This document shows positions 7,513 to 36,765 of a stretch of DNA of 47,523 bases, piece by piece. Every line of letters begins with the position of its first letter. Within the stretch, counting starts at the first letter, position 1. The position numbers and the translations under genes are program-made. Below the pieces are notes generated by a model that saw only the letters and a list, made by a program, of their open reading frames with translations, did no database searches and was not told the DNA's origin. The stretch spans positions 1-47,523 of IMG/VR virus record IMGVR_UViG_3300036827_000033; one strand, 5' to 3'. The stretch is from a virus.

Positions 7513-9450
7513 TCACGCCGTATAAATCAACCCGCCGCCCGTGCGGGCGACGCGGGCGAGGAAGTCGGTATTGCGGGCGGTTCGGTCTGCGGCGTCGGCG
7601 GTGCGCCGCGCGTAATCCGTCGTTCCCGATTGCAGACCCTGAAGCCCCGCGATGTTAAACAGGCCGCGTGATTGCTCGCTGGCTTTCAGGACGGATTTCG
7701 ATATGTCGTTGGTGTCGAACTTGGGGAAGGTTGGTGGGGTGGATGTTGGCGGCGGTTCGTTTGTTCCGGGCGGGGATTCTTCCTTCGCTTTTTCCCGCAG
7801 CTTTTTCAGTTTCTCTTCGAGGTCTGCAAGATCCTGCTTTTGCTGATTCGCCTCGGCCTCCGAACCTTTCTGACTGATCTGTTCGATAGCGGCGAGCTTG
7901 GCATCGCGCTCTTTCTCGATCGCGGCGATGGCGTCGGCGGTTTCTTGTGCGACCGCCGGCGGGCTCTTTTTGAACAAATCCTCCATGTACTTCTTTTCTT
8001 CTTCCAGTTTCTTCAACCGTGCCTGTTGCTCACCGATAAACTTTCGCGCGCTCTCCTTGTCTGATTCGGATGAGTCCTTGCTGTCGATTGTGTTTTGCGT
8101 GTAGCCGATTTGCCGTTTCTGCTCATCGATATCCGCCTGCTTGTCGTTGAGTTGAATCCGATCAGCGGCCGTCTGCAAAGGAATCTGCACGAAAGCCCTC
8201 AGCTTCTGCCACAAGATTTTCACTTCCGCAATCGCCTTGGTCCAAGCAATCACTAGGTTCTGTCCTATGGCATCGAAAATCGCGGTGAGTGCGCCCTTCA
8301 ATTCAATCCAGCCGATTTTTAGTTCGGTGACAACGATCTTCCCGGCCAGCGCAATGTCGCCCGCTGCCAGCGCATCCGTGATGCCACCGAACGCCGTTGC
8401 TGCCGTGTCCCGCAGCGTCGTGAACTGTCGCCCGAGATAGCTCAATGCCTTGTTACCCGAATCGCTCAGAAAGAAAAACGCGGAGGCTGCGCCCACGACA
8501 ACAGCCGAGAGAAGTCCGAGCGGCGTCAATAGGGCTTCCAGCAATCCAGTTACAACTCCGAGCGTCGCGCCGATTCCAATGATGGCGATTCCAAAGCCCG
8601 TTATCGCGGTGCCCACAACGGTTAGTGCGATGCCCACGAGCCCTGCGGTCACGGCCAGTTGTTTATGCGACTGCGCGAAATCGATGATTGCACGCCCCGC
8701 TTGGTTCGCAGCCCGCTGGAACGGCAATAGTGCGTCGGCAATCGCCCCGCCGATAGTGAATGTGACAACCTTCACCTGCGTCCACAGCCGCAACATCGCA
8801 TCGTGGAACTGTTCGGCGGCGAGCGCGTCCTTCGTCGTCATAACAATTCCAAGATCGGTCGCTTCCTGCATCAGCGCGCGAACGCCCTTCGAGCCCTGCG
8901 TGAGCAACGGCAACAATGCTGCTCCGCCGCGGCCAAATACCGACATGGCCGCTGCCGTTCGTTCGGCTGGATCTGCAATCGACGCGATGGAATCTGCCAC
9001 CTTCGCGAACTGCTGATCGGGCGAGAGCCCGGCCAGTGCCTCGGTAGTCAATCCGAGCTTGTCGAGTTTTCCGGTCGTACCTTCCGTTTCGTCCGCTACG
9101 CCCGCGATGCTCTTTTGCATCTTGCCGATCGCGGGCAACAACTGATCGAACGAAACGCCCGATTGCTGGGCCGCGAATTTCAGTTGCGACAACGCTTCAA
9201 CGCTGATGCCTGTGCGCTTGCTGGCCTTGGCGAGTTCATCGCCCATTTCCGAGAACGTTCCGAGTGCGACACCCAGCGCACCGGTGATGGCGCCGCCCGC
9301 GGCGGTGATGCCAGCGCCAACCTTGGCGATGGTCTTGCCGAAAGAATTAAACGCGGATTCTGCCTTCTTCATGTCTTTGATGAAGGCGTTGGAATCTGCG
9401 CCAAGCTCGACGTAGGCGCGGCCAGCGCGAATGTTGGATGATGAAGGCAT
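7513..9450 (-). CDS. tail tape measure protein
   Basis: The 645-residue protein has a helical Ala/Gly-rich N-terminus, a block typical of tape-measure proteins (G-I-S-V-E-A-L-S-Q-L-K-F-A-A, then V-F-G-R-G-G-A-A-L-L-P-L-L), a strongly hydrophobic central part (about 265-330) and a long charged coiled coil (about 430-570). It sits between the gp10-like gene and the distal tail genes. Its length predicts a fairly short tail, by the usual rule that tail length scales with this protein. Confidence 0.9.
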   Translation of the reverse strand: MPSSSNIRAGRAYVELGADSNAFIKDMKKAESAFNSFGKTIAKVGAGITAAGGAITGALGVALGTFSEMGDELAKASKRTGISVEALSQLKFAAQQSGVSFDQLLPAIGKMQKSIAGVADETEGTTGKLDKLGLTTEALAGLSPDQQFAKVADSIASIADPAERTAAAMSVFGRGGAALLPLLTQGSKGVRALMQEATDLGIVMTTKDALAAEQFHDAMLRLWTQVKVVTFTIGGAIADALLPFQRAANQAGRAIIDFAQSHKQLAVTAGLVGIALTVVGTAITGFGIAIIGIGATLGVVTGLLEALLTPLGLLSAVVVGAASAFFFLSDSGNKALSYLGRQFTTLRDTAATAFGGITDALAAGDIALAGKIVVTELKIGWIELKGALTAIFDAIGQNLVIAWTKAIAEVKILWQKLRAFVQIPLQTAADRIQLNDKQADIDEQKRQIGYTQNTIDSKDSSESDKESARKFIGEQQARLKKLEEEKKYMEDLFKKSPPAVAQETADAIAAIEKERDAKLAAIEQISQKGSEAEANQQKQDLADLEEKLKKLREKAKEESPPGTNEPPPTSTPPTFPKFDTNDISKSVLKASEQSRGLFNIAGLQGLQSGTTDYARRTADAADRTARNTDFLARVARTGGGLIYTA

Positions 9451-14367: not shown

Positions 14368-14399
14368 CCGCGCCGGCGAGATTTACCCCGCCGGCGCGG
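14368..14399 (-). terminator. intrinsic terminator after the decoration gene
   Basis: Perfect 11-bp stem (CCGCGCCGGCG/CGCCGGCGCGG) with a 10-base loop, followed on the minus strand by GGTTTATCGG. It lies after the decoration gene stop and before the methyltransferase-glycosyltransferase gene, so it would split the late operon unless read through. Confidence 0.65.
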
Positions 14400-15420: not shown

Positions 15421-17640
15421 TTAGACGCCGGCGCTCCATTGGGCCGTGCGGTAATCGTGGAGCGCGACACCAAAGTCGTAGATGCAGCGCAGGTAGATGC
15501 CCAGCGTGTTGAAGTTGGCTTCGCCGCGTTCGATGATCGGCGTGGACTGGCCGCGCAGATAACCGATTTGCAGCGGAGCCTTGCCCGTGCCGGGGTCGCC
15601 CAAAAGCATCCACGCCGTATCCGTCATGCCCGAGACCGGCGATTGCGCGCCAAACCACGGAGAGACGACCGGCGTGTATTTGTTGCGGTGAGCGTTGAGA
15701 TTGGGCTCGACGCTCTTGCTTGACGTGCTGCCGAGCGCGCCGACAACAAGGTTCGCACCTTGGAAAAGGTTGTCGGCGGTTGTTTCGAGCGCGGGGCCAA
15801 CAAGAATCCGATCCGGTGTCTGCATGATCGGGTTTCCGTTGGCATCTTTTTGCTCGCGGAACTTCTGGCGAGCGGTTGCCATCGATGCGATAGCCAGCGC
15901 CGAGCCCGCCCCGCTCGCGTAATTCTTAGCGCCGGACGAAAAAAAGTTGAAGGCGTTGGCCGTCTGTCCCGTGCTTGCGCCCGGAGCAACGGTCGTCAGA
16001 CCGGAAAGCAGCGTCGTGAAGGCTGCCTTTTCCCGCGTCACCATCGCGAGTTCCATCAACGATTGCGGAGCGGCGGTAATCGCGCTCATATCGTCGTTGA
16101 CAATCATCGTGCGCGTGATGACCAAAAGGCCGCCCTGCGTCTTGATCTGGTTTTGGTACGTTTCGTCCTGCAAGCCGACGTTCGGCACTTCGCCGGTCGG
16201 TGCTACTTCCGACATCGTTCCCAGCGCCGTCATGCGGTATGACTTGAACGGCTTAAAGTCGTTGGAATCGCGCTTCCAGCAGAGCTGATCGACAACGCTT
16301 TCGGCCATGTCGTACTGCTGCAAAAGCATCTTGTTCAAGACGTTTTCGAGCAGTCCAGACAGGCTCATCGTCGAAAAATCGCCGCCTGCGGCTTGAATGC
16401 CCGACAGGTTGCGATCGTGCATGAACATCCTGCGCAGGAAATCTTCGTCCATGCGGCCCGGCTGGAACGGAATGCCATTGGCCGCGGCGATCATGTACAT
16501 CGCCTGATGCAATCCCATCCGGCGAAGCTGCTTGCCAGTGGCGATTTCCTTGGCTTGGTCGGTGAGCCCTCGCAATGCGTACTCTTCGCTGACGCCGCCA
16601 GACATTGCGACCGATGCGTAGATCATGTCCGGGGTGGCATCTTTGCCGGCGCCGGTGTTGATGTACGGCCCACCGCTCGGGCGCGAGGCGCGGAGTGTTT
16701 CAAGTTCCGTCTTCTCGATCGTCCAGCCTTCTTCGATGGCCTTGGCCTCGATGTCGGCGTGCTTGCCGTCGCAGGTTTTGCGGATGGCATTGATGCGCTT
16801 TGTTTCCGCTGTCTGCGTGGCGCGAATCTGCTTCAGCGTCTCGCCCGCAACGTCAACGGCTGGCTCGTCGTCAACCTTGGCCTTGATCGGCTTCTTCAGC
16901 GGCTTGGCGGCCAGAACGACTTCATCGTCGTCGGCACCATCGGCAGCAACCGCGGCCTCGGCATCATACGCCGCCTGCAAAACGGGCTTCTGCTGGTCGC
17001 TGAGGTCGCCCAGCGCGAAGCCCTTCGACTTGAGCCATTGCTCGAAAGTCATGGGGATTCCTTCTGCGGCCTTGGCCGCAATGCGGGCGGACGTGTTTTC
17101 GTCAGCGCCACGGGTGGTGAATGTCAGCTCGGACAAAACGGTTTTGCGAGCTACAACTAGCGGTCCCGAAAACGTCTTCCCGTTGACCTGGACCATTCGG
17201 CCTTCGGGTATGAATTCGTTCTTTTGCGGATCTGCCCCGATGGAAATTTGCCACGGGAAGCCCTGCAACCCCGATTCGCGAACCTCATTTGCCGCCGGGC
17301 CGGCGCCGGAAATGATTCCTGAAGCGGTGATCTGGTTCGCGGTGATGCTGATCGCGGTGGTGTGGCCCACCCTGTCATCGCCTTTGTGTTCCAGAAGTGC
17401 CGGAATCGTCTGTTTTGTGGTCATCCCCTGAAGGTCAACCACGAGCGGATACGGCGCGTAGGCTTTGAGGCGAAGCTCGCCGCCGGTGTAGGCCGTGACG
17501 TTGAATTTCGCCGGGCCTTTGTCGACGCTGGCTTGAATTTCCGCTGTGGCGTCAAAATCGAAGCGGATCAGCTTTGGCGTTCCCTTGGACGTGTTGAGGG
17601 AAGCCAAGATGGTCCGCCGCGGGCGGTTTTTCGTTTTCAT
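15421..17640 (-). CDS. prohead protease fused to major capsid protein
   Basis: Predicted 739 residues. Residues of about 25-210 look like an HK97-type prohead protease (His85 in L-L-E-H-K-G-D-D, Ser133 in Q-I-S-I-G). An acidic linker follows, then from about 330 a major capsid protein region ending in L-R-C-I-Y-D-F-G-V. Protease and capsid protein fused in one chain is known in some Mu-like and other phages. The protease would cut itself off and trim the scaffold-like linker during maturation. Preceded by the portal gene in the usual order. Confidence 0.85.
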   Translation of the reverse strand: MKTKNRPRRTILASLNTSKGTPKLIRFDFDATAEIQASVDKGPAKFNVTAYTGGELRLKAYAPYPLVVDLQGMTTKQTIPALLEHKGDDRVGHTTAISITANQITASGIISGAGPAANEVRESGLQGFPWQISIGADPQKNEFIPEGRMVQVNGKTFSGPLVVARKTVLSELTFTTRGADENTSARIAAKAAEGIPMTFEQWLKSKGFALGDLSDQQKPVLQAAYDAEAAVAADGADDDEVVLAAKPLKKPIKAKVDDEPAVDVAGETLKQIRATQTAETKRINAIRKTCDGKHADIEAKAIEEGWTIEKTELETLRASRPSGGPYINTGAGKDATPDMIYASVAMSGGVSEEYALRGLTDQAKEIATGKQLRRMGLHQAMYMIAAANGIPFQPGRMDEDFLRRMFMHDRNLSGIQAAGGDFSTMSLSGLLENVLNKMLLQQYDMAESVVDQLCWKRDSNDFKPFKSYRMTALGTMSEVAPTGEVPNVGLQDETYQNQIKTQGGLLVITRTMIVNDDMSAITAAPQSLMELAMVTREKAAFTTLLSGLTTVAPGASTGQTANAFNFFSSGAKNYASGAGSALAIASMATARQKFREQKDANGNPIMQTPDRILVGPALETTADNLFQGANLVVGALGSTSSKSVEPNLNAHRNKYTPVVSPWFGAQSPVSGMTDTAWMLLGDPGTGKAPLQIGYLRGQSTPIIERGEANFNTLGIYLRCIYDFGVALHDYRTAQWSAGV

Positions 17641-17661: not shown

Positions 17662-19275
17662 TCAGTCGTCTGACGTCGGCGTTTCGTCGTCGCCGTCGTT
17701 GTCGGATTCTTCGGGGTTTGGTTCTGGCGCGATGGAGGCTGGCGTCGGCGTCCCGCGTGTCGCAAAAACCTTCTCGCGCCGCGCTGCGCGCAGTTCGTCG
17801 ACGCTCATGCCGTAGGATTTCGCCGCAGATTCCTCAACCTCTTCCCAGTCGTAACCTTCCAGCGAGCATTCGATCGGAATGGAGGATACGCCGCTTTCAA
17901 GTCGTGTTTCCGCCGCCGTCGCCATCTTCGCGGGGTCCGCGTGCGCGGTAATGCGGTCCCAGCGCCAGCCGTGCGGGGTTTCGATCAGCACGCCTGGAAT
18001 CGGCTGTGGCATAGGCTTGGAGAAAAGCCCCGCCAGTCCCATCGATCGCAACATGCCGTCGACGCGCTGCGCTTCAAGAATCCATTCGGCGAAAATCCGG
18101 TCGAGCAAAAACTCGTACTCGCTGCGGTCGACGTTCACGGACTTAATGAACGATTGCGAGGCAACGTAAGCGCTGGACATATTCGCCAGCCGCGCATCAC
18201 CTGTGAAGATAAACAGCGGCATGTCGAGCGTCTGGCTGATCTCCATCAGCAGGGCCATCGTGTACATGTCGTAAGTCGTCGTCGGCTGCTCGGGCTTCAT
18301 CTGGAAGGCATCGTAGCCATCCGGCAGAACGCCCATCATGCGGCGCTTGATCTCGATATAGTCCGTGTCCGTGCCGAATCCGGTGTTGCCCTTCGTCGCG
18401 GTGTCCGCGTCGGCCGGTCCCTGCGTCTTAATGAACCCCGCATGGTCCGCCGCGGTCTCTGCCGCCGCTAAAACCGCCTTGCGATAGCGACGAAGCTCCG
18501 CAAACAGGTCCAAGGCGGGCACGGCGTCGGGAATCCCGCGGTGCTGGCCGGGGCGAATGCGTCGAAAATCGTGCAAAACGTAGCGCGCTTCCCACGGATC
18601 GAATTGATAGCCCATCAGCACGAACGCCCCGAAAGCGCCTGGATGCTGCTTCAAAATGTGATAAATCTGCGGATTACCCCACTTATCCAGCACAATTCCA
18701 TCGAAATATTGGTCGGGGAACTGCGATGGGTACATGCCAAATAGCGGACTCGCCACCTGATCGCATTCGATTTCAAAAACGTCGAGCTGAACCGGGTGTG
18801 GGATACCCGGATTATTCCGCATGAGATTGAATCCCTCGCCGTTGTAGAACCGCGCCGCTCGCCCGGTGCGCATCTTCTCGGCTAGGCGAATCTTCTTCGT
18901 CCACAGATTGAAGCTGGTTTCGATTTCTTCGTTGAGCCCTTTATCGTCGGTTCCCATGTGAAGCCGCGGGCCGGTGCCGATAACGAATCGAGCCAGCCGA
19001 TTAGCGCCGCCCATGAAAAACGGGTTGTTGTGATATTCATAACGGCAACGCATCCGCAACGTGCGCCGGACCATCCACGATGCCGACGCATCAACCGACA
19101 TCGCATCGGCCATTGCCCAGTGACGGCGGTTATCATCGGTCGTAAACTGCGCATCGAACCGCGCGCGAACCGCCGGGAGATGGGGAATCTCCCCGAATTG
19201 CGGGCCAGTTACCCGATTCGCCTGAGCCGGCGTCGATCGCGATGATGTATCGCCGAACGGCGGGAGCTGCTTCAT
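17662..19275 (-). CDS. portal protein (lambda gpB family)
   Basis: A 537-residue protein with the lambda-family portal signature: R-A-R-F-D-A-Q-F-T-T near the start, then H-D-F-R-R-I-R-P-G-Q-H-R-G-I-P and M-E-I-S-Q-T-L-D-M-P. It forms the dodecameric vertex ring through which DNA enters and leaves the head. An acidic tail (D-N-D-G-D-D-E-T-P) ends it. Overlaps the gpW-like gene by four bases. Order terminase, gpW-like, portal matches lambda A, W, B. Confidence 0.9.
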   Translation of the reverse strand: MKQLPPFGDTSSRSTPAQANRVTGPQFGEIPHLPAVRARFDAQFTTDDNRRHWAMADAMSVDASASWMVRRTLRMRCRYEYHNNPFFMGGANRLARFVIGTGPRLHMGTDDKGLNEEIETSFNLWTKKIRLAEKMRTGRAARFYNGEGFNLMRNNPGIPHPVQLDVFEIECDQVASPLFGMYPSQFPDQYFDGIVLDKWGNPQIYHILKQHPGAFGAFVLMGYQFDPWEARYVLHDFRRIRPGQHRGIPDAVPALDLFAELRRYRKAVLAAAETAADHAGFIKTQGPADADTATKGNTGFGTDTDYIEIKRRMMGVLPDGYDAFQMKPEQPTTTYDMYTMALLMEISQTLDMPLFIFTGDARLANMSSAYVASQSFIKSVNVDRSEYEFLLDRIFAEWILEAQRVDGMLRSMGLAGLFSKPMPQPIPGVLIETPHGWRWDRITAHADPAKMATAAETRLESGVSSIPIECSLEGYDWEEVEESAAKSYGMSVDELRAARREKVFATRGTPTPASIAPEPNPEESDNDGDDETPTSDD

Positions 19276-19508: not shown

Positions 19509-21653
19509 TTAGCTTCTTCGCTGCATTTCCGAAAATCTGACGCGCTTCACGATCCGCTCGACCATTCCTGGCGACTCGGGGATCTTCACGCCGCGCACCG
19601 ATGCCGCGACATGGCACCCCACAAGGCAGTCAAGCCAGTGGTTGTCCGAGCCCTTTACCCGCAGTTCCCACTCCGTCACCGTTCGATCGCTGGCCGTTAC
19701 CGGAATTCCGCGCTCAGAGACGATGTGATCGGCGAGCAGGCGATGATCCTCGGGTTCCTTGCCAAACAGGGACAGGCACCCACGTCCGCCCATCCCCACG
19801 CGGAGCCGGGAGAAAACAAATGACTTCCAGAAATTTGAGTTGAACGTGACGTAACGGACGGTACGACGGCCCGCCACATTCGGCATTCGCCAATTCAGCC
19901 CCACGCGATCGCCCGGCTTGCGGTGGTATTCAGACATCGGGCGATTCTTTGCGCCGATGCCCTGGCCATGCGATGGCATCAGAATTCCCGTATGCGCTGA
20001 TTGCCTGCAAAACTGATAAATCACGTCGGTTGAGTCGCCCCAGTTGGCGTCAATCTGAATCGCGCTGGGCTTCATCACCGCGCCGTCCTCGCGCAGCCAA
20101 TCGCGCGACATCAGATTGCCCACCGTCATGTCGAGGCCAGCATAAATCGCCTCTTCGAGACTTTCCTTTCCGGTTTCCTTTTGCAGCGTCCGTCGCACGT
20201 CCTTATAGGCGAAGTATTTCCGCCGCTGGTCGGGGAACGTGTCATAATCGACAATCTCGCCGGTGAAGTCATCGGCGAACGCCACGCACATCCAATACAG
20301 GGCGTTTTTCTGAACGTCGATGAATGAAACAAGGTGCGAGGCTGTCGGCGGCAGTAGTCCGCGGTCGCGACCCGTGATCTTTTCGGCGATCTCCTTTGCA
20401 GTGATCTGGTCGCCGGCCTGGTCCTTCTCGCGCGTCGGCTCGTTCTGGCACTCGCTGGCGAAGACTTCCGGCCCATCGTCAATCAGCGCGTTGTAGGCGT
20501 GCTGAATTGCCGACAATTCCGTCGCGGGGTCAAAGCAATGTTCCCACGCGACCGCGCACGCTTCGTCCATCTTGCCGCGATTGGTCTGATAGAACTCGGT
20601 CGCGGCCCGGTGCGCGCGCTGCTGATCCCCCAGCATCGCGCCATCGTAAGTGTTTCGCAGGCGGGCGTAGTCGCCGAGCCAAAGCGTGTCGTGTGTTTTC
20701 GACCACGCCGACACCATCTTGATCCGCATTCCCTGCCACGCGGGGAACTTCTTGGCATCCAGCAGTGTTTCAATCAGGTCGTCGGGGCGGATGACGGTCG
20801 CATTCATCACGACCGCGATTTTCCGATTGTGACCCCCCAGTTTCAGGATGCTCTTGCGAATCACGTCCAGCCGCTTGCGGACCTGTAGTTCCGTCGCTGC
20901 GCTTTCGTCAGTCTGCGGATCGTCGATGACAACGAAGTCCGGTCGCTGCTGCGTCCCGTCGGGCCGCTTGTGCTTCATCCCGCGGCTCGCCGCCATGATC
21001 GAGCACGCCGCGATGATGGCGCCGCTCGCGACGCTGCCGGGAATCGTCGGCAGGACGATCGTGTCGGCCCGCCATTCGATATGCGTCTGCTGGCCCTGGT
21101 ACGTCTGTGACCCGCACCGCTGCGGCTTACCTTCCAGCGCCCGCACCGCGTGGCAAACTTCGGGAAAGTCGGCGTAGAGCAGTTCGTTCTCGGACAGCTC
21201 AAGCTTGATACTGTCGATGTTGCCCGCTGACCCATCGGCGCCGGATGCGAAGATCGGGACGAAGCGGCGATGCCCGTACAGCACGGCCCAGAGCGCGGCG
21301 TTTTCTGAAATCGTCGTCTTGGCAAATCCGCGGGGGAACGCTTGAACGAACAACCCGCCGTCAATCGCGCATTGCTGAATTCGGCTGATCGCGTCCGTGT
21401 GGGACTGGCTGAACGGTTTCAGGCCGGTTGACGCTGGGAAATACGTCGCGAGGAAGAGTTTCAGGTCAAGACGGCAGCGATCGCGGCGATCGGGGTCGAT
21501 TAGCGCCGGAAGGTCGCCGATGTCAGCAACAGCAATCGTTCGTTCGCGCGATCGCTTGGCCGCTGCTTCGCGGTTTGCGTCACCGGCGCCTCGCAGTATC
21601 GAAATCTCCGCCGGAATCGGTGATGGTTCCGGCGTTTTTTTGCGACGGGACAT
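19509..21653 (-). CDS. terminase large subunit (gpA family)
   Basis: A 714-residue DNA-packaging motor. The ATPase has a Walker A-type loop F-P-R-G-F-A-K-T-T (106-114) and Walker B V-V-I-D-D-P-Q (241-247). The C-terminal nuclease starts near F-I-D-V-Q-K-N-A-L-Y-W (about 445-455) with a later D-C-L-V-G-C-H-V-A-A block. The lambda gpA-like family fits the downstream gpW/portal order. I could not identify a small terminase subunit; the genes before it are short or tail-tip-like. A 133-base AT-rich spacer precedes it. Confidence 0.9.
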   Translation of the reverse strand: MSRRKKTPEPSPIPAEISILRGAGDANREAAAKRSRERTIAVADIGDLPALIDPDRRDRCRLDLKLFLATYFPASTGLKPFSQSHTDAISRIQQCAIDGGLFVQAFPRGFAKTTISENAALWAVLYGHRRFVPIFASGADGSAGNIDSIKLELSENELLYADFPEVCHAVRALEGKPQRCGSQTYQGQQTHIEWRADTIVLPTIPGSVASGAIIAACSIMAASRGMKHKRPDGTQQRPDFVVIDDPQTDESAATELQVRKRLDVIRKSILKLGGHNRKIAVVMNATVIRPDDLIETLLDAKKFPAWQGMRIKMVSAWSKTHDTLWLGDYARLRNTYDGAMLGDQQRAHRAATEFYQTNRGKMDEACAVAWEHCFDPATELSAIQHAYNALIDDGPEVFASECQNEPTREKDQAGDQITAKEIAEKITGRDRGLLPPTASHLVSFIDVQKNALYWMCVAFADDFTGEIVDYDTFPDQRRKYFAYKDVRRTLQKETGKESLEEAIYAGLDMTVGNLMSRDWLREDGAVMKPSAIQIDANWGDSTDVIYQFCRQSAHTGILMPSHGQGIGAKNRPMSEYHRKPGDRVGLNWRMPNVAGRRTVRYVTFNSNFWKSFVFSRLRVGMGGRGCLSLFGKEPEDHRLLADHIVSERGIPVTASDRTVTEWELRVKGSDNHWLDCLVGCHVAASVRGVKIPESPGMVERIVKRVRFSEMQRRS

Positions 21654-27465: not shown

Positions 27466-27492
27466 CCCGGCGCGCCCGAAAGCGTCGCCGGG
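27466..27492 (-). terminator. intrinsic terminator abutting the lipobox gene start
   Basis: 7-bp perfect stem (CCCGGCG/CGCCGGG) with a 13-base loop, followed on the minus strand by TTTTTG and then GAAAC before the ATG at 27455. It lies 14 bases after the stop of the upstream gene. It would stop rightward-to-left transcription before the lysis and tail genes unless antiterminated. Confidence 0.6.
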
Positions 27493-27506: not shown

Positions 27507-27956
27507 CTATGCCGTGGGAAATTCAGGCCAAAGCCAAGCGGCGATTCGTCGCCCAAGTCCATCGGCGCTATCCATTCGTTGTTGCAGTTCAGCGAATGAT
27601 TCGAAATTCTGACCGGAAATTCTCCAATAGAATTTCACGGCGTTCGCTGGCGCGTCTTGCCCTTCGTCGATTACGAGCACAAACAGGTTCTTCCAATCGC
27701 TGCGAGTCGATTCGAGTTCTGCGCGGATATGCAAATCTTGGCCGCGTGGGACGCGCTCGCCCTCGCGCTTGTATTCGATGCGGGCCTTCCTTTTTGCACC
27801 CCAATTATCCAGTTCGTGCGTGCTGAAAGAGTGGTCGACATCGCATGGTCCGTTTCTTTCCGGGCAATGCTTGTTGATCCATTGCCCGGATCGAAGCCAT
27901 GACACTTCGCCGGTTCCCCCGCAACATGGGCAAGATGTGCGAAGCGGATCGTTCAC
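27507..27956 (-). CDS. hypothetical protein with N-terminal Cys cluster
   Basis: Predicted 149 residues. The N-terminus C-P-C-C-G-G-T-G-E-V-S-W looks like a DnaJ-type zinc-ribbon repeat; the rest is mixed and helical (W-K-N-L-F-V-L-V-I-D-E-G-Q-D). Its ATG overlaps the methylase stop by four bases. Function unknown. Confidence 0.6.
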   Translation of the reverse strand: MNDPLRTSCPCCGGTGEVSWLRSGQWINKHCPERNGPCDVDHSFSTHELDNWGAKRKARIEYKREGERVPRGQDLHIRAELESTRSDWKNLFVLVIDEGQDAPANAVKFYWRISGQNFESFAELQQRMDSADGLGRRIAAWLWPEFPTA

Positions 27957-28960
27957 CGGATCAACACAAAACCGAACTTCGTGAATGATTCACAAAATGC
28001 CTTCGCGTCTTTCCCGAGATAGATAACCGCCTGCCCCTGAAGCGGTGCGCCCGGTTTGCCGTCCTCGTCCAAAAACTTGACGCGCCCGGATGGAAAACAA
28101 ATCGCGGAGGCGACGTTCGCCAACTTCTGAAACCATTTCGTCTCAGTGGCGTTGTTCACCAAAACGATTGCTTCGGGAACGTCGGCGGGGAAATGCCCGC
28201 AGAGTTTTTCAGTGAAGGCCGTCACCAGATCGGACGTGTAAGGCGGGTTCATCCACACCTTGCCGCGCCAATCTTGCTTCAGGCCGTCGTCGTCAACGGC
28301 GTAGAACGTTTCCGCGCCGACAACTTTTTGAGCAATCTTCGATGTGGCGGGGTCGAGTTCGATCTCACCCAGCACTTCGCGGGCCGCTTCGATATATTCC
28401 TTCGGCGTGTACCATTCGGGAACGCCGGTATTCTTCGAGACGTGCGCCGCAGTTCCCGCCTTCTCTGTCCCGGTGGCGAACCGGATGAAATCGATAACGC
28501 TCACCGGCTCGTCGACTTCCTTGTTGGCCTCGAAATACTCGTCAATCCGTTCCGCGTTCGCGGCTACCTTGCGGTAGTTTGTCAGCGTGTTTTTCGAGAA
28601 GGGCAAAGCTGTCCCATCGCTTGGGATAGCTTTGTTGCCCTTGCCGCCCATCGCCCCGCGCTCTTCGGGCGGCTTCGCTGGCATCGCCTTGCCGATGTAC
28701 GCCGTCAGCTTGAATCGCCCGGCTTGAATCGTGTTGATAGCGTCGCGTGTGGCGTGAAGATCGTTGGCGAGCTTCAATAGCCCATCACCAGCCCGCAGCG
28801 CCTTCAGTGAATCTCCAACGGACGCTTCGTTGGAAACTATCGCGTCCACCTTTTCGAGAAATATCTTCGCGCCCGTCGTAACGTCGCGCGAAACTAATGA
28901 TCCGTTGCCGTTCCGCTTGCTGATTGAGCGCGCGGAGGTGGCAGTCTGCCCGACTGTCAT
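27953..28960 (-). CDS. phage DNA N6-adenine methyltransferase with N-terminal extension
   Basis: Predicted 335 residues. The C-terminal part (about 160-335) is a Dam-type phage methylase: W-Y-T-P-K-E-Y-I, E-L-D-P-A-T-S, and the catalytic M-N-P-P-Y motif (N-P-P-Y, methyl transfer to adenine). The N-terminal half is an extra helical domain. It is downstream of the NusG-like gene and its terminators. The phage methylates its own DNA, probably against host restriction (inference). Confidence 0.85.
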   Translation of the reverse strand: MTVGQTATSARSISKRNGNGSLVSRDVTTGAKIFLEKVDAIVSNEASVGDSLKALRAGDGLLKLANDLHATRDAINTIQAGRFKLTAYIGKAMPAKPPEERGAMGGKGNKAIPSDGTALPFSKNTLTNYRKVAANAERIDEYFEANKEVDEPVSVIDFIRFATGTEKAGTAAHVSKNTGVPEWYTPKEYIEAAREVLGEIELDPATSKIAQKVVGAETFYAVDDDGLKQDWRGKVWMNPPYTSDLVTAFTEKLCGHFPADVPEAIVLVNNATETKWFQKLANVASAICFPSGRVKFLDEDGKPGAPLQGQAVIYLGKDAKAFCESFTKFGFVLIR

Positions 28961-28991: not shown

Positions 28992-29195
28992 TCAGTCTTC
29001 CGCCCGCGCCATCAGCCGGCGCAGCGGCGTCCAATCCATCCGGCGCAACCGCGGCAGGGAACGCCCGTCTTCGGTGTACAGCCGGTGATTGCGCATCCAC
29101 ACGCCCGTCTGCCGCGTCGCCTGGTCCAGCACGTCGGATGCGGTGGCGAACGGGGAATCAATCACTACCGGGATCTGGTCGATGAACAGCGTCAT
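28992..29195 (-). CDS. hypothetical protein, 67 aa
   Basis: Opens with T-L-F-I-D-Q-I-P-V-V-I-D and contains W-M-R-N-H-R-L-Y-T-E-D-G. Not recognised. A strong hairpin with a T-run ends eight bases before the ATG and there is no Shine-Dalgarno, so translation would be limited or need special conditions. Confidence 0.5.
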   Translation of the reverse strand: MTLFIDQIPVVIDSPFATASDVLDQATRQTGVWMRNHRLYTEDGRSLPRLRRMDWTPLRRLMARAED

Positions 29196-29203: not shown

Positions 29204-29235
29204 CCGCCGCCCGGTGAACGAATGCCGGGCGACGG
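29204..29235 (-). terminator. intrinsic terminator before the 67-aa gene
   Basis: Stem of about 11 bp with one wobble pair; core CGCCCGG/CCGGGCG at 29208-29214 and 29225-29231. Read on the minus strand it is followed by TTTTT and ends just before ATG at 29195. Second of two tandem hairpins after the NusG-like gene. Confidence 0.6.
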
Positions 29236-29258
29236 GGAAGGGAAGAGTGAAGGCTAAA

Positions 29259-29288
29259 ACCGGCGCGGGTTCGTCGGGCCGCGCCGGT
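29259..29288 (-). terminator. intrinsic terminator after the NusG-like gene
   Basis: Perfect 10-bp stem (ACCGGCGCGG/CCGCGCCGGT) with a 10-base loop, followed by TTTTAG on the minus strand. It starts 14 bases past the NusG-like stop. Together with the second hairpin it should block transcription into the methylase and late genes. Confidence 0.7.
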
Positions 29289-29302
29289 GGGGGAAGAAAA
29301 GA

Positions 29303-29863
29303 TCAGGCGGCTTCGAGTATGGCCGGATCGATGTCAGTTGGAATGGACTGGCCCATGATCTCAAGGCGAACGGTGAACACTTCTTTGCCGCCACGGATTC
29401 GGCGGTTTTCGAGCGTACCCTCGCGGCCCATGAACGCGTCAGCTCGCACGCGTACACGTCCGCCCTCGCGCAATTCGGGGTATAGATCAGGCGTTTGCGC
29501 CAAATGGAGCTCCACTTCAGCGAGTTGCGATTTCAAGCGTGCTTGCCCTGATTGCGGGATGAGCTGATGCGCGGAAACGCGGTGATTGCGATCGGCTATG
29601 TCGCGGCCACGCTGGCCGGAGCCGACGAAAAGCTTGTAAGGAAACACGGACCTTTTCCATGTCCGGGCTTTGCCATTGGGCCGTCGGCCACGCTCAACAT
29701 AGACCGGCTTGTAGCAACCGACGCCGTTGCCGCGAAGCTCTTCGATGAGCGCGGATTCGTGCGTTCTGCCGCCGTAACTGCGGAATCTTGGCCGACAAAT
29801 GCTGATTTCACCTTCGAGCGTCGCAACCGAATTTAGGGAATCTTCCGCTGGAATCTCGTCCAT
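29303..29863 (-). CDS. NusG-like transcription factor, probable antiterminator
   Basis: Predicted 186 residues in two domains. The N-terminal half has the NGN pattern (A-L-I-E-E-L, G-V-G-C-Y-K-P-V, then a basic stretch, V-F-P-Y-K-L-F-V). The C-terminal part has a KOW-type stretch (G-R-V-R-V-R-A-D-A-F-M-G-R-E-G-T-L) and V-R-L-E-I-M-G-Q. NusG paralogues such as RfaH and UpxY act as processive antiterminators. Two terminators follow immediately. A GGAGG site lies before the ATG. No ops-like recruitment element was recognised in the 127-base leader. Confidence 0.7.
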   Translation of the reverse strand: MDEIPAEDSLNSVATLEGEISICRPRFRSYGGRTHESALIEELRGNGVGCYKPVYVERGRRPNGKARTWKRSVFPYKLFVGSGQRGRDIADRNHRVSAHQLIPQSGQARLKSQLAEVELHLAQTPDLYPELREGGRVRVRADAFMGREGTLENRRIRGGKEVFTVRLEIMGQSIPTDIDPAILEAA

Positions 29864-29990
29864 TCTCGTCCTCCATGCGCGGTCCGTAGGCGTAATGTTG
29901 TGGCGAGCTACAGAGTGGATGCCGCCGTTCGCCAGCGACTAGGTAGCCCGGTGCCCTTGGTTGGCGTTAGAACAATCATGGACGGGAAAA
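29864..29990. promoter_or_regulatory. leader region of the NusG-like gene
   Basis: Noncoding spacer ahead of the NusG-like gene with a GGAGG ribosome site near the ATG. No clear -35/-10 pair or ops-type element was identified. It lies just past the stop of the ribbon-helix-helix-like gene. Confidence 0.3.
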
Positions 29991-30188
29991 TCAGCGATGT
30001 GAAGCTTTTTCGGGCGGATGATTTGTTTTTGTCATACTTTTCGATCGCCGTTTCTCGCTCATTGCCCGCGCCAAAAGCCGTTGAACTACACGACTGGCGT
30101 TGCGATGCCCCTTGAGCCATACGGCTTGCGATTGCATGATCGAGATACAAACCCGCGCCCGGCCATCAACTTCATTGCTTCCCGCCAT
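29991..30188 (-). CDS. ribbon-helix-helix-like DNA-binding protein, 65 aa
   Basis: Starts at 30188 with GGAG upstream. The longer frame (to 30311) is a shadow. R-V-C-I-S-I-M-Q-S-Q-A-V-W-L-K then N-A-S-R-V-V-Q-R-L-L-A-R-A-M fits the strand plus two helices of a CopG/Arc type. Basic tail. Might regulate the NusG-like gene downstream. Confidence 0.5.
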   Translation of the reverse strand: MAGSNEVDGRARVCISIMQSQAVWLKGHRNASRVVQRLLARAMSEKRRSKSMTKTNHPPEKASHR

Positions 30189-30225
30189 CCTTAGCTCCGT
30201 TGCCTTGCTTCCCTTCGCCACGACA

Positions 30226-30870: not shown

Positions 30871-30880
30871 CGGAAGTATG

Positions 30881-30931
30881 CCCTTTACGCAATTAAATAA
30901 TCTTGCTACTTGACAATGATTGCGTAAAGGG
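30881..30931. repeat. inner inverted repeat flanking the transposase promoter
   Basis: Perfect 13-bp inverted repeat (CCCTTTACGCAAT at 30881-30893, its reverse complement at 30919-30931). The inner part of the terminal repeat is therefore present a second time, flipped, between the end and the gene. A TTGACA at 30910-30915 sits between the arms. Transposase binding here could also repress its own promoter. Confidence 0.75.
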
Positions 30932-30937
30932 TAAAAT
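30910..30937 (+). promoter_or_regulatory. transposase promoter, likely leaderless
   Basis: -35 TTGACA (30910-30915), 16-base spacer, -10 TAAAAT (30932-30937). Transcription would begin at or next to the ATG at 30944, and no Shine-Dalgarno is present, so the message is likely leaderless. Confidence 0.6.
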
Positions 30938-30943
30938 TAAACC

Positions 30944-31954
30944 ATGGCAAGCAAGAAGCAACATCACCTGTCCAACTCAGAAGTCATCCGAGAAATCCCA
31001 ATCGCTTGCTCGGACGAAACCGCCGCTGTCGAGTTCTTTGAGCACAAGCGCTGGGGCGGTACGCCCTGCTGCGTCCACTGCGCCAGCGTGAACGTCTACA
31101 AGATGGTCGATGCCAAGACCGGCGAGCGCAACAGGCGTTTCCTCTGGCGTTGCCGCGAGAAAGAATGCGGTAAGCAATATACGGTTCGGATCGGGACCGT
31201 CTATGAAGAAACGCGCCTGCCGCTACGCCACTGGGCTTATGCGTTCTGGCGCGCGTCCACGTCCAAGAAGGGCGTGAGCGCATTGGAAATCAAGCGCCAC
31301 TGCCAGATTGGATACCGCGCCGCGTTGTTCCTGATGAACCGCATTCGCTTCGCCATGGCCCCAGAGCCAACCGAATCGAACAAGCTCAAAGGCATCGTGG
31401 AGTGCGATGAAGTCTATCTTGGCGGGAAGCCCCGCCACCACACCGGCCCGCACAAGCGCGGGCTCGGCACGCTCAAGACGCCGGTGTTCGTCGCCGTTGA
31501 GCGCGGTGGGCAGATTCGCCGTCGAATCATGCCAAACGTCACGGCTCGTAATGTCAAAGCTGCGATTCGCGAGATGGTTCATACGAGTGCCGAAATCCAC
31601 ACGGATGAAAATCGCGTGTATCAGGGACTCGGAAACGAGTTCGCCGGTCACGCAACCGTCTGCCACAAGACTGGCGAATACGTTCGCGAGGGCGTTCACA
31701 ACAACACCGCCGAATCGAGCAACGCCCTAATCAAACGCGGACTCATGGGCATCTATCACAACGTCAGCAAGCAATATCTCCACCGCTACCTATGGCAGTG
31801 GGATTTCTGCTGGAACAGCCGCGACCTGAACGACGGCGAGCGAACGCTTGTGGCGATCCATGCGGCAGAGGGCAAGCGGTTGATGTATCGTGAGCCAACA
31901 GCCAAGCCGGTTCCGCCGCTTCCGGGCGAGCAGTTGCCACCATTTCCGCTATAA
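30944..31954 (+). CDS. IS1595-family transposase
   Basis: Predicted 336 residues. N-terminal zinc-ribbon region (C-C-V-H-C and later C-R-E-K-E-C-G, about residues 37-80), then the ISXO2-like catalytic domain with V-E-C-D-E-V-Y-L-G-G-K and I-H-T-D-E-N as acidic residues and H-N-N-T-A-E-S-S-N as the third. Length matches the family. It starts at 30944, right after its own -10 box. Confidence 0.9.
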   Translation: MASKKQHHLSNSEVIREIPIACSDETAAVEFFEHKRWGGTPCCVHCASVNVYKMVDAKTGERNRRFLWRCREKECGKQYTVRIGTVYEETRLPLRHWAYAFWRASTSKKGVSALEIKRHCQIGYRAALFLMNRIRFAMAPEPTESNKLKGIVECDEVYLGGKPRHHTGPHKRGLGTLKTPVFVAVERGGQIRRRIMPNVTARNVKAAIREMVHTSAEIHTDENRVYQGLGNEFAGHATVCHKTGEYVREGVHNNTAESSNALIKRGLMGIYHNVSKQYLHRYLWQWDFCWNSRDLNDGERTLVAIHAAEGKRLMYREPTAKPVPPLPGEQLPPFPL

Positions 31955-32000
31955 CTGGCCATTACTTGCATATTGATACGTCGATGGCTTCAATATTCGA

Positions 32001-33452
32001 ATGTCCGAAGGCGGCAATTTCGAACAGTTGCCGCTAGATTTTCCGAAAGCGGCCCCTCCTATGGCGATCACATCCGCAGAGATTTCGAAGGAACAGGCGG
32101 AACGGATTTCGAATACGCCGGAGGGGCAGTTTTCGGACGTGAAGGCTGTCGAGATTGCTCCTGCAAAGCTCACGAAGGCAATCTCCGCGCTGGCGAACTC
32201 CGATGGTGGAGATGTTTACATCGGGATTGATGAAATCGGCCCGGATAAGCGTCGCCAATGGCGCGGATTTGCAGACGAGGAGGCAGCAAACGGCCACATT
32301 CAAATATTCGAAAAGCTATTTCCGCTTGGCACGGACTTCCAGTATGAGTTCTTGGCGACCGACGCATTTCCCGGTTCGGTGCTTCACATCCAAGTTAACA
32401 AAACCCAAGGCATCGTGACCGCCTCAAACGGTATCGCCTATATCCGCAGGGGGGCGTCCAGTTTGCCCGCAGATAACCCCGAAATGCGGAAGCGGCTGGA
32501 ATACGCCAAGGGGGTTGTATCGTTTGAAGTCGAGTTGGTGAATGCTCCGATCAGCACGGTAACTGAATCGAAAACCGTCCAGGTATTCATTCGCGAGGTT
32601 GTTCCGACATCAACTCCGCAACTTTGGCTTCGAAAGCAACTGCTCACCCGCGAAGATCGGCCCACCGTTGGTGCCACTTTGCTTTTTTCCGATGAGCCGC
32701 AATCCACGCTTCCGAAGCATTGCGGCGTAAAGATTTACCGTTACAAGACCAAGGAGCAGACAGGCTTCCGTGAGGCACTAGCGTTTACGCCCAAGACCGT
32801 CGAAGGCTGCCTCTACCAACAGATTAAAGATGCCGTTCGAATCACGCGAGAGACGGCGGAGAGTATCCCAAGGCTCGGCGAACAGTCTCTTGAGCAGATC
32901 ACTTATCCCGCCGAAACACTTCACGAAATCATCACCAATGCAGTGATTCACCGCGATTACAGCATTAAGGACGACGTACACATTCGAGTTTTTGAGAATC
33001 GCATCGAAGTTCAGAGCCCCGGAAAGTTGCCCGCGCACGTTACTGTCGAGAACATTTTGGAAGAACGGTACGCAAGAAATGGCGCGATTGTAAGGATCTT
33101 GAACAAGTTTCCCGATCCGCCGAATCAAGATGTTGGCGAAGGGCTGAACACTGCATTTTCGGCAATGCACAAATTGGGACTCAAAGAGCCGACGATTACG
33201 CAGACGGAAAATGATGTTCTAGTAATCATCAAGCACGAGCCGCTGGCCAGCCCAGAAGAGGCCATCATGGACTACTTGGAGAATAACCAGCAAATCAACA
33301 ACAGCACGGCTCGCGAAATAACGCATGTTCGAGCTGACCATCAGATGAAAACGATATTCAAACGAATGGAGGCAAAGAACATGATCGAACAGATTCCGGG
33401 AACGATTACAAGAAACACGGCCTACCGAAAGAAGTCTCCTAGTAAGGACTAG
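32001..33452 (+). CDS. AlbA_2/Schlafen-like and HATPase_c passenger protein
   Basis: Predicted 483 residues. The N-terminal half (about 35-155) has the AlbA_2 pattern (A-L-A-N-S-D-G-G-D-V-Y-I-G-I-D, G-I-A-Y-I-R-R-G). The middle (about 300-400) is a GHKL ATPase-like stretch (I-I-T-N-A-V-I-H-R-D-Y-S, V-Q-S-P-G-K-L-P, D-V-G-E-G-L-N-T-A-F). The C-terminus is a winged helix (D-Y-L-E-N-N-Q-Q-I-N-N-S-T-A-R-E-I). Such proteins are annotated as transcriptional regulators or helicase-like; some relatives act in defence. Cargo of the element. A second ATG at 32061 is possible. Confidence 0.75.
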   Translation: MSEGGNFEQLPLDFPKAAPPMAITSAEISKEQAERISNTPEGQFSDVKAVEIAPAKLTKAISALANSDGGDVYIGIDEIGPDKRRQWRGFADEEAANGHIQIFEKLFPLGTDFQYEFLATDAFPGSVLHIQVNKTQGIVTASNGIAYIRRGASSLPADNPEMRKRLEYAKGVVSFEVELVNAPISTVTESKTVQVFIREVVPTSTPQLWLRKQLLTREDRPTVGATLLFSDEPQSTLPKHCGVKIYRYKTKEQTGFREALAFTPKTVEGCLYQQIKDAVRITRETAESIPRLGEQSLEQITYPAETLHEIITNAVIHRDYSIKDDVHIRVFENRIEVQSPGKLPAHVTVENILEERYARNGAIVRILNKFPDPPNQDVGEGLNTAFSAMHKLGLKEPTITQTENDVLVIIKHEPLASPEEAIMDYLENNQQINNSTAREITHVRADHQMKTIFKRMEAKNMIEQIPGTITRNTAYRKKSPSKD

Positions 33453-33464
33453 CCATTTAAGTGA

Positions 33465-33549: not shown

Positions 33550-33550
33550 G

Positions 33551-33577: not shown

Positions 33578-33641
33578 CGGGCTCGCTGTGGGGACGCGGT
33601 TTGTGGGCAAGATATAACTGTCTGACGCGGAGAATATTCCG

Positions 33642-34611: not shown

Positions 34612-35982
34612 TCACTGGAACGGGTCGTAACTAGGGTCGGACGCCACATATGATTCCCGCGTCTCAAGCTCGACAAGCGATTGCGTCTGCCCGTTCCATT
34701 GCACGTAACGCATCCCGCCAGTTCCTTCGCGCACCTTCGAGCCAATGATGCTTGTCATTCCGGTTGCGCGCCAATTCGGATCTTCCCGGTGATGCACGTC
34801 GTCACTGTCTGAGAAGAGAACCACGTCGGCATCGGCGTGATAGGCGCCGCTGTCGCGCAGGTCATCGGGTGAAGGCTTGCGGATCGCCGTGCCGCGTTTC
34901 TTGAGCTGTTTGACGGCGATGACGGGGATATTCAGACGCTTAGCGAGATGCTTCAATGTTCGCGACATGGCGTTGTGCCGCGTCGTCGCGCTGTCGTCAT
35001 TGTCCGAACGGCCCATGTCGATCAGGTCAACGTGGTCTACGATCGCCCATTCCCACGCTTGCTGAACGACACCAACCTCGATCGACGTCACCACCTGAAC
35101 GAGAGTCTGCGCGGTGTCGTGGATATAGAGCTTCTGCCCCGCCAGCGCCGCGATTCCATCCACGAGCTTGTCGGCCTGATTCCCGGTGATTCTTCCCTTG
35201 CGGATGTCTTTATTGTTTACGCCTGTCGTTGACGACAGGATATTGCGCGCGATTTTCTTTCGGCTTTCTTCGAGCGAGACGATCCCGCCGGGGTGTCCGT
35301 GCTTCGCGAAGTGCGCGGCGATTTGCTTGCAGAATGCCGATTTCCCGTGACTAGGCCAGCCCGCGATGATGACGTATTCGCCGCTCGCTAGGCCGCCACC
35401 CGTCCAATCGTTCAGGAAGCTGAACGGGAGCGATATCATCGGCACGCCATCGCCGGTCGCTTCTTCGTACACCTCGTGCAGGGCATCTTCGAGAACGACC
35501 GCGGCGGGAGTGCGGCCCGTAGCGTGCTGCGTGGCGAGTTCGCTGATGGCCCACTGATTGATTTCCGCCGATTCCGCATCCGGTGCCATAGCGCGTTTCA
35601 ATTGCTCGTACGACTGGCGGATAAGCCGTCGCAGCGCAGATTTTTCGGCGACGATTCTCGCGTAGTGGGCACCGTTCGCTGGCGATGGAACGGTCGATAA
35701 AATCACGGCCAGGTATTGAAATCCGCCGATACTTTCCAGCTCGCCAATCCTGACCAATTCCTCACGCAAAATCACCGCGTCGATCGGTTTTTCCAGCGCT
35801 CGCAACCCGGCTATGGCCCGAAAAATGATGATGTGGTCTTCGAGAAAGCAATCGTCTGCGGACGCGATTTGCAGCACGTCGCGCAGGATATCCTTATCGA
35901 GCATCATCGACGCCAGCATGCAGCGTTCGGCGTCGATGTTGCGCGGCGGAAGGCGGTCGAATTGCTCGGCGATGTCGTGCAT
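34612..35982 (-). CDS. DnaB-family replicative helicase
   Basis: Predicted 456 residues. N-terminal domain (about 10-110, I-D-A-E-R-C-M-L-A-S-M) then RecA-like core with Walker A A-G-W-P-S-H-G-K-S (207-215), a sensor-like block (I-V-D-H-V-D-L-I-D-M), and C-terminal Arg-finger region. Typical DnaB order. It unwinds DNA at the phage fork. One base separates its start from the stop of the replication gene at 35983. Confidence 0.85.
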   Translation of the reverse strand: MHDIAEQFDRLPPRNIDAERCMLASMMLDKDILRDVLQIASADDCFLEDHIIIFRAIAGLRALEKPIDAVILREELVRIGELESIGGFQYLAVILSTVPSPANGAHYARIVAEKSALRRLIRQSYEQLKRAMAPDAESAEINQWAISELATQHATGRTPAAVVLEDALHEVYEEATGDGVPMISLPFSFLNDWTGGGLASGEYVIIAGWPSHGKSAFCKQIAAHFAKHGHPGGIVSLEESRKKIARNILSSTTGVNNKDIRKGRITGNQADKLVDGIAALAGQKLYIHDTAQTLVQVVTSIEVGVVQQAWEWAIVDHVDLIDMGRSDNDDSATTRHNAMSRTLKHLAKRLNIPVIAVKQLKKRGTAIRKPSPDDLRDSGAYHADADVVLFSDSDDVHHREDPNWRATGMTSIIGSKVREGTGGMRYVQWNGQTQSLVELETRESYVASDPSYDPFQ

Positions 35983-36765
35983 TTACCCCCAATCCCTTTC
36001 GGGCGTTGGCGCCGTCCCTGCGAAGGGATCAACGAGGTCTTGAGCGTCGGTTTCCCACGGCGTCCGGTTGAGCCAGGTCATCGGGAACGGGATGTACTCG
36101 CCGCCTTCCTTCGTCCAGTCGTGGCAATTTTTGAACCGTTCCAGCGTCGAAACCACCGCGTCGGCGATCGGTTCAAGTTTTTCCCGTTTCCAGTGCGCGA
36201 CGCATTTCGAGCGGCCCTGCTTGCGAAAATGCTTGGGCCAAGCCTTCCAAAACCGAGAAAACCCAGCCGGGAGTACGGCCTCGCCCGGAACGGGCGCAGG
36301 TTTTATGGGTTCGGGTCGGTTGGGTTGGGTTGGGTTGGGTTGGGTTAGCGGGTCGAAAGTCTCACGGATTCCGGCCCGGATTCGGCCCGGATTCGGCCCG
36401 ATGTCGTTTGTTCCCTTCGATGGGAACCGGATATCGGGCTTCGTGTCTGAACGTAAGTCCTTGCGGCAATTGACGATCTCGATGTAATGCCGGCCGTCTG
36501 CTTCATAGATTTCTATGAGCCGGGCGTCTGCTAGTTCATCGATTCTCGTCTGTACCGCCTTCACATTGACCTGTCCCAACGCCATCCGCCTGGTGTAGAG
36601 TTTTCCCAGCACCATCGGAGCGTCACCGTAGTAGTGATTCGCATCGTCGGATTGAGCGATCAGACGGGTAAAGAGGGTTTCGGCACCCTCGCTGACCGCG
36701 TTGATCTTCTCGCTGTCGGGGTATGACTTGAGCAGCGGGTTGTATGGCTCTCGCTTATTCATCAT
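35983..36765 (-). CDS. replication initiator or helicase-loader-like protein
   Basis: Predicted 260 residues. The central part has N-P-T-Q-P-N and P-L-T-Q repeats made by GGGTT tandem repeats; the C-terminal half has F-W-K-A-W-P-K-H-F-R-K-Q-G-R-S-K and W-L-N-R-T-P-W-E, a pattern common in phage initiator or loader proteins located next to DnaB. Lambda O carries its origin iterons inside the gene; similar repeats occur here (36322-36399). Confidence 0.6.
   Translation of the reverse strand: MMNKREPYNPLLKSYPDSEKINAVSEGAETLFTRLIAQSDDANHYYGDAPMVLGKLYTRRMALGQVNVKAVQTRIDELADARLIEIYEADGRHYIEIVNCRKDLRSDTKPDIRFPSKGTNDIGPNPGRIRAGIRETFDPLTQPNPTQPNRPEPIKPAPVPGEAVLPAGFSRFWKAWPKHFRKQGRSKCVAHWKREKLEPIADAVVSTLERFKNCHDWTKEGGEYIPFPMTWLNRTPWETDAQDLVDPFAGTAPTPERDWG
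36322..36399. other. candidate origin: G-tracts and iteron-like repeats
   Basis: Five GGGTT repeats (36322-36346; a G-quadruplex-capable strand) followed by three copies of GGATTC(C)GGCCC at 36366-36377, 36378-36388 and 36389-36399. They lie inside the replication gene, as origin iterons do in lambda O. Alternatively they only encode Pro-rich sequence. Confidence 0.4.

What the first reader, a model, noticed from the sequence alone, without database searches (positions are those of the whole stretch)
29204..29863. NusG-like gene followed at once by tandem intrinsic terminators
A phage-coded NusG-like protein is followed after 14 bases by two strong terminators, and further ones occur at 27466-27492 and 14368-14399, each near a late gene boundary. 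This is the layout expected if the protein is a processive antiterminator, a functional counterpart of lambda Q or N but from a different family.
Basis: partly seen in the sequence, partly recalled or inferred. Interest (0 to 1): 0.7.

Follow-up and report, generated by a model that had tools for sequence, protein, structure and literature searches.

The report
Phage NusG-type late gene antiterminator
This phage carries its own copy of a NusG-type protein, which rides on RNA polymerase, placed just before two strong transcription stop signals and the structural genes; similar proteins sit in the same place in many other phages, so it probably switches on late genes by letting the polymerase run on.

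Summary
The gene at 29303-29863 (minus strand, 186 aa) encodes a divergent NusG-family protein. Pfam misses it, but leave-one-out profiles, matches in 33 of 392 Planctomycetota genomes, and an NGN+KOW model matching solved NusG/RfaH support it. The two terminators 14 nt after the stop codon are real (dG -18.1 and -22.4); no tandem pair that strong arose in 40 shuffles. The second ends 3 nt before the next ORF's ATG, so that ORF seems to need read-through.

The gene lies between replication and late genes of a planctomycete-type temperate phage. A survey showed this is general. Of 50 other viral records with NusG paralogues, 43 have a recognisable large terminase; in 43 of 43 it is downstream on the same strand, in 40 of 43 within 4 kb. 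Three named phages agree.

Best reading: a phage NusG paralogue in lambda Q's position, acting as a late antiterminator. The terminator layout itself is not general (2 of 58), the window's terminase relatives lack the gene, and activity is untested. I found no paper describing this class.

The parts
29303..29863 (-). NusG-family (NGN + KOW) gene, 186 aa, proposed late antiterminator
29260..29287 (-). intrinsic terminator 1, 14 nt after the stop codon, dG -18.1, tail TTTTAG
29204..29235 (-). intrinsic terminator 2, dG -22.4, tail TTTTTCC; its 3' arm holds the only Shine-Dalgarno-like GGCGG before the next ATG
28992..29195 (-). 67-aa ORF whose ATG follows the T-run of terminator 2 by 3 nt; no family known
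29864..30225 (-). 362-nt stretch without a called same-strand gene before the NusG gene; no unusual fold (z -0.58)
27466..27492 (-). third strong intrinsic terminator, inside the region downstream of the NusG gene, dG -20.2
14368..14399 (-). strong G-C hairpin with a weak T-run, between the head decoration gene and the next gene
27953..28960 (-). Dam-type DNA adenine methyltransferase gene, downstream of the terminators
19509..21653 (-). terminase large subunit, 7.65 kb downstream of the NusG gene, same strand
17662..19275 (-). portal protein (late gene)
15421..17640 (-). capsid protein (late gene)
7513..9450 (-). tail tape measure protein (late gene)
34612..35982 (-). DnaB-type replicative helicase (early block, upstream)
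35983..36765 (-). replication initiation protein (early block, upstream)

Best explanation
The protein is a phage-encoded specialised NusG paralogue at the junction of the early (replication) and late (structural) gene blocks. Shown: it belongs to the NusG family with NGN and KOW domains; it is followed by two strong terminators and, on the same strand, by the late genes; NusG paralogues in many other phages occupy the same position relative to the terminase. Inferred: it binds the elongating RNA polymerase through its NGN domain, as characterised NusG proteins do, and keeps the polymerase from stopping at the terminators at 29204-29287 and 27466-27492, and perhaps from Rho, so the late genes are transcribed once the protein has built up. 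It would do the job of lambda Q from another protein family, but probably with a NusG/RfaH/LoaP-like contact to polymerase rather than a Q-type nozzle in the RNA exit channel.
For: Family: UpxY model E 4.5e-6; 33 of 392 Planctomycetota genomes match, best E 1.3e-11, 33% identity over residues 34-184; profiles built without it score it 71.4 and about 41 bits, while the best of 1000 shuffles plus the reversed sequence scored 7.7 with the second profile; model pLDDT 78.6; Foldseek best NusG E 5.9e-7, RfaH 2.1e-6; residues 17-118 match the RfaH NGN domain at Z 8.3, 2.9 A over 92 residues. Position in the window: replication genes upstream, late genes downstream, one strand. Terminators beyond chance; the next ATG is 3 nt after the T-run, leaving no room for a promoter after terminator 2, and no promoter-like site was found on that strand between the stop codon and the ATG. 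Position elsewhere: 43 of 50 NusG-bearing viral records have a TerL by phrog_2, phrog_9 or phrog_15; 43 of 43 downstream and co-oriented, 40 of 43 within 4 kb, about 4.6 expected by random placement. Labrenzia phage vB_LagS-V1 and Microcystis phage vB_MweS-yong2: the gene is at the end of the early block and terminase opens the record; Bradyrhizobium phage ppBjS10J-1: it lies before the genes that run into the capsid gene. Phage_antitermQ matched neither the window nor any of the 50 records.
Against: Intrinsic terminators are not enriched after viral NusG genes (2 of 58 against 17 of 425) or before them (0 of 53 against 22 of 413). No NusG-like gene was found by profile in 50 records of phages with a related terminase (one weak tblastn match was not confirmed by profile), nor in 122 loci around relatives of the terminase or the Dam gene: the gene is not conserved in this phage group. 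The window's terminase is 7.65 kb away, further than in 42 of the 43 others. The protein is very divergent (branch 2.06) and has K77 where over 90% of relatives have Y. A transposon lies about 1 kb upstream of the gene. No recruitment site was found. No activity is shown.
Confidence: 0.62

Rival explanations
1. The gene is simply the last gene of the early operon. The two terminators end that transcript, late genes have their own promoter and activator, and the NusG paralogue acts only within the early operon or generally on polymerase.
For: Terminators at the end of an operon are ordinary. No recruitment site was found. Terminators after the NusG gene are not a conserved feature.
Against: Terminator 2 ends 3 nt before the next ATG, leaving no space for a promoter after it, and the scan found none between. 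The repeated placement before terminase in other phages is unexplained by this reading.
Confidence: 0.2
2. It is a cargo gene: a host-type NusG paralogue (UpxY-like) carried by the prophage to act on host polysaccharide operons rather than on phage genes.
For: Closest sequence relatives are Planctomycetota paralogues, and proteins next to five of them include glycosyltransferases, a sugar transferase, polysaccharide biosynthesis and Wzt proteins. In the free tree it groups with them (95/91).
Against: It sits inside the phage's own one-strand gene series between replication and late genes, not at an edge. Grouping with phage NusG proteins is not rejected (AU p 0.58 and 0.285).
Confidence: 0.1
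3. It has kept the fold but lost the activity, or works as a decoy that displaces host NusG and so blocks Rho, without reading through intrinsic terminators.
For: Loss of the conserved FPGY tyrosine and the first-strand tryptophan, long branch, lack of intrinsic terminators near the other viral NusG genes. RfaH strongly inhibits Rho and makes polymerase NusG-resistant (PMC5449661, start of abstract seen in the listing).
Against: The open reading frame is intact, has a good ribosome site and aligns along its length; strong intrinsic terminators are present here.
Confidence: 0.08

Closest known systems
UpxY family (Bacteroides capsule antiterminators; NCBIfam NF033644)
   Same: Best family-model match, nearly full length; a NusG paralogue encoded next to the long operon it is thought to serve (UpxY function from PMC7819879, passages seen).
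   Different: 26.7 bits against a curated cut-off of 100; carried by a phage at the late-gene boundary; terminators lie after the gene, whereas UpxY acts in the leader before upxY.
RfaH
   Same: NGN + KOW fold, structural match; specialised NusG paralogue for long operons.
   Different: RfaH is a stand-alone gene recruited by ops DNA; no credible ops site here, and the model shows the KOW domain as a barrel, not as the helices of autoinhibited RfaH (the helical state is recalled).
LoaP
   Same: NusG paralogue that promotes read-through of intrinsic terminators near its targets (PMC12691694, passages seen).
   Different: LoaP needs an RNA hairpin in the leader; none was identified here. Its known targets are antibiotic clusters.
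Lambda Q
   Same: Place in the genome and proposed task: last early function, opens the late genes past a terminator (lambda layout recalled).
   Different: Different protein family; no Phage_antitermQ match. Q loads at a DNA site in the late promoter; no such site is known here.
GafZ of the Caulobacter gene transfer agent
   Same: Antiterminator for a long structural cluster (PMC11150451, passages seen).
   Different: Not described as a NusG-family protein; it is proposed to work together with host NusG.
Phage proteins already labelled NusG/RfaH or phrog_6386
   Same: Same family: Microcystis phage protein UNJ22101.1 annotated NusG; BFVD entries named NusG and RfaH.
   Different: Only names by similarity; no role in late transcription is proposed in the records seen.

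Membership tests
NusG/Spt5 family | NGN domain followed by a KOW domain, by sequence | tested here: met
   Alignment with Planctomycetota paralogues over residues 34-184 and leave-one-out profiles. Pfam NusG PF02357 itself did not match.
NusG/Spt5 family | NGN alpha/beta fold and KOW beta-barrel | tested here: met
   Model pLDDT 78.6, pTM 0.49; Foldseek and VIA-align matches to NusG and RfaH. Domain arrangement is uncertain.
NusG/Spt5 family | Binding to the elongating RNA polymerase | not testable with these tools
   Needs biochemistry; part of the conserved FPGY motif is changed.
Housekeeping NusG | Groups with the housekeeping NusG rows | tested here: not met
   Nine rows taken as housekeeping NusG form a starred group (100/96) without it.
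UpxY subfamily (NF033644) | Curated score cut-off of 100 bits | tested here: not met
   26.7 bits.
RfaH | ops element in the target operon | tested here: inconclusive
   No exact match; 81 sites with up to 2 mismatches across the window, none marking the gene. The ops letters are recalled.
LoaP | UNCG-type RNA hairpin in the leader | not tested
   Only the overall fold of the 362-nt leader was tested, which is unremarkable (z -0.58).
Lambda Q family (PF06530) | Sequence match to Phage_antitermQ | tested here: not met
   No match in the window record.
Late antiterminators in the Q position (functional class) | Gene between early and late blocks, same strand as late genes | tested here: met
   Window map; survey of 50 viral records.
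Late antiterminators in the Q position (functional class) | Read-through of a terminator before the late genes | not testable with these tools
   Terminators present here; activity not measured.

The most novel reading that the evidence does not exclude
NusG paralogues form a widespread, undescribed class of phage late-gene regulators. Phages of planctomycetes, alphaproteobacteria, cyanobacteria and others would use a NusG-family protein, placed just before the terminase, where lambda uses Q. The window would be a case in which the terminators it overrides are still visible right after its gene.
Probability: 0.5. Interest if true: 0.78.

Novelty: new variant of a known kind. Interest (0 to 1): 0.62.

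Why it matters
The known late antiterminators of phages and phage-like particles compared here (lambda Q, GafZ) are not NusG relatives. If NusG paralogues do this job in many phages, the one universally conserved transcription factor family has been recruited by phages as a late switch. It would also give a marker for the early/late boundary in phages of hosts with no phage genetics, and explain hypothetical proteins before many terminases. The window offers a compact test: one protein, two terminators, one downstream gene.

Tried and rejected
Sequence searches with the protein alone found nothing in viral contigs, genome contigs, cultured phages or the PDB: it is too divergent, which is not evidence against homology.

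The match in viral record G009 (E 3.6e-4) was dropped: it covers only residues 27-86, lacks the conserved NusG motifs, and is not found by the family profiles.

Terminators right after the gene as a general signature: tested and not found, nor in the 300 nt before it.

ops-like element: 81 matches with up to two mismatches against 47 expected; part of the excess is GGCGGC repeats near both ends of the record, not the gene. Leader RNA structure: no more stable than shuffles.

Independent capture from a planctomycete host: suggested by the free tree but not established; one clade with 9 phage rows (p 0.58) or with all 54 phage rows (p 0.285) is not rejected, so I make no claim on the number of origins.

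Limits of the survey: the viral collection was scanned with one pattern, P[LV]F[PS][GSY]Y[LVI]F[LVM]; 88 of 187 candidates were confirmed and 80 kept. With the Labrenzia phage they reduce to 58 groups at 80% identity. 50 were given to the terminase searches, at most 50 being allowed per call; left out were L146, L167, L190, L196, L213, L214, L217 and L220. 7 of the 50 showed no terminase with the three families used. phrog_9 and phrog_15 were run only on the 19 without a phrog_2 match. The random-placement expectation (3.6 + 1.0 = 4.6 of 43) ignores gene order habits and the relatedness of the records. In some searches, 47 of 48 first large downstream ORFs were scanned (L214 left out for length). 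For the relatives of the terminase, 50 of 91 records were searched whole by family; many are fragments.

Literature: ten searches of open-licence PMC papers found no description of NusG-family late regulators in phages. [quoted passage not shown] Preprints and most subscription papers were not searchable, so absence is not proof.

Full report
What is there. The window is a virus record of 47,523 bases, 58.8% G+C, with nearly all genes on the minus strand. From right to left: an integrase at 43988-45574, replication genes (initiator 35983-36765, DnaB 34612-35982), the NusG-like gene at 29303-29863, a 67-aa ORF, a Dam methyltransferase at 27953-28960, unknown genes, and the late genes: terminase 19509-21653, portal, capsid, head decoration, tail tape measure. 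The terminase has relatives in planctomycete metagenome bins (best 61% identity, a Phycisphaerales bin), so a temperate phage of a planctomycete is the likely identity.

The protein. Pfam and the PDB sequences do not recognise it. NCBIfam UpxY does at E 4.5e-6, far under that model's own cut-off, and phrog_6386, a transcription antiterminator, at 0.005. Searching Planctomycetota genomes with the protein gave matches in 33 of 392, best E 1.3e-11, over residues 34-184. Profiles made without the window protein still score it at 71.4 bits (24 host paralogues) and about 41 bits (45 viral ones), against 7.7 for the best of 1000 shuffles plus the reversed sequence with the second profile. The AlphaFold model has the order of strands and helices of an NGN domain followed by a KOW barrel; best structural matches are NusG and RfaH. 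The KOW barrel is common to many proteins, so the telling match is residues 17-118 on the RfaH NGN domain, Z 8.3, 2.9 A over 92 residues. It is a divergent member: the nearly invariant tyrosine of FPGY is a lysine and its tree branch is long.

The terminators. Hairpin 1 begins 14 nt after the stop codon; hairpin 2 follows, with five T. With the third at 27466-27492 they are the only three sites at dG <= -18 on either strand, against 0.43 expected, and no close pair arose in 40 shuffles. Hairpin 2's T-run ends 3 nt before the ATG of the 67-aa ORF, and the only Shine-Dalgarno-like bases before that ATG lie in the hairpin's 3' arm. If that ORF is a gene (its third-position G+C is 0.87; no relative was found), its message must come through the terminator. 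That is the strongest local argument for antitermination; it is inference from anatomy.

Is the position meaningful? I collected NusG paralogues in viral contigs with a pattern drawn mainly from host paralogues. They fall into 58 groups. The first large ORF downstream was scanned in 47: phrog_2 (terminase large subunit) matched 25 and phrog_9 (terminase large subunit) 6; Pfam gave Terminase_6N 12, TerL_ATPase 6, Terminase_3 3, GpA_ATPase 2. Whole records were then searched for terminase without regard to position. Of 50 records, 31 matched phrog_2, and of the other 19, 9 matched phrog_9 and 3 phrog_15. In all 43 the terminase is downstream on the same strand; in 40 it is within 4 kb; random placement would give about 4.6. 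Among the 16 phrog_2 records of 20 kb or more it is 16 of 16 against 0.9 expected. Three named phages agree: in Labrenzia phage vB_LagS-V1 the gene follows the methylases and a helix-turn-helix gene, one HNH gene follows, and terminase opens the record; in Microcystis phage vB_MweS-yong2 it is the last gene and the terminase genes open the record; in Bradyrhizobium phage ppBjS10J-1 it lies before a set of hypothetical genes that runs into the major capsid gene. Adjacency across the record ends assumes circular or permuted genomes; the Labrenzia record is marked circular, the Microcystis record linear.

What speaks against. In those phages the NusG gene is often joined closely to the next gene (median gap 16 nt), so it may be part of the operon it serves, as with UpxY, and may act on Rho or on pausing rather than on intrinsic terminators. 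In the window's own phage group the gene is not conserved: 0 of 50 records with a related terminase by profile and none in 122 loci by in-house profile search, where the four phage NusG loci given as positive controls rang. The window's terminase is 7.65 kb away. Nearest chromosomal relatives sit beside polysaccharide genes (27 proteins near 5 of 12 fetched neighbourhoods scanned; in the other 7 my gene caller did not recover the NusG gene), so a role outside the phage cannot be excluded.

Phylogeny. The free tree puts the window protein with host paralogues, but trees that put it with 9 phage proteins, or with all 54, are not rejected. I therefore make no claim on how often phages acquired these genes.

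Mechanism. Established for the family (PMC7819879, passages; PMC12691694, passages): NusG proteins bind the elongating polymerase through the NGN domain; specialised paralogues act on few operons, some at intrinsic terminators (LoaP). Inferred here: the early transcript makes the protein; polymerases that carry it pass the two terminators and 27466-27492 and reach the late genes. The recruitment signal is unknown: no ops-like site stands out and the leader has no unusual fold.

Novelty. NusG paralogues are a known kind, and some phage copies carry that name in databases. Their consistent placement before terminase, and hence a role as late regulators, I did not find described; the library lacks preprints and most subscription papers. 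I rate it a new variant of a known kind.

Noticed in passing
30871-33848: A transposon of the IS1595 type with 44-nt inverted ends (75% complementary) and a perfect 8-bp target duplication TCTTTCCT. Besides the transposase (30944-31954) it carries an AlbA_2/Schlafen plus HATPase gene (32001-33452) and a tRNA-Pro gene (33465-33549, minus strand). It lies between the replication genes and the NusG-like gene, so it may cut the early operon.
   Followed up: partly
833-981 and 47344-47498: GGCGGCGGCGT repeats near both ends of the record.
   Followed up: no
21609-21634: A strong terminator-like hairpin with seven T on the plus strand, antisense to the start of the terminase gene (dG -17.8).
   Followed up: no
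12936-14318: A Methyltransf_24/TylF-like methyltransferase gene among the head and tail genes.
   Followed up: no
27953-28960 and 33858-34376: Two separate Dam-type methyltransferase genes, plus a D12 class one at 38215-39072.
   Followed up: no
viral loci of alignment A4 (first large ORF downstream of viral NusG genes): 6 of 47 such ORFs matched ParB-like plus DNA methyltransferase families, so a ParB-methyltransferase gene seems a regular neighbour in some groups. Which loci these are was not resolved.
   Followed up: no
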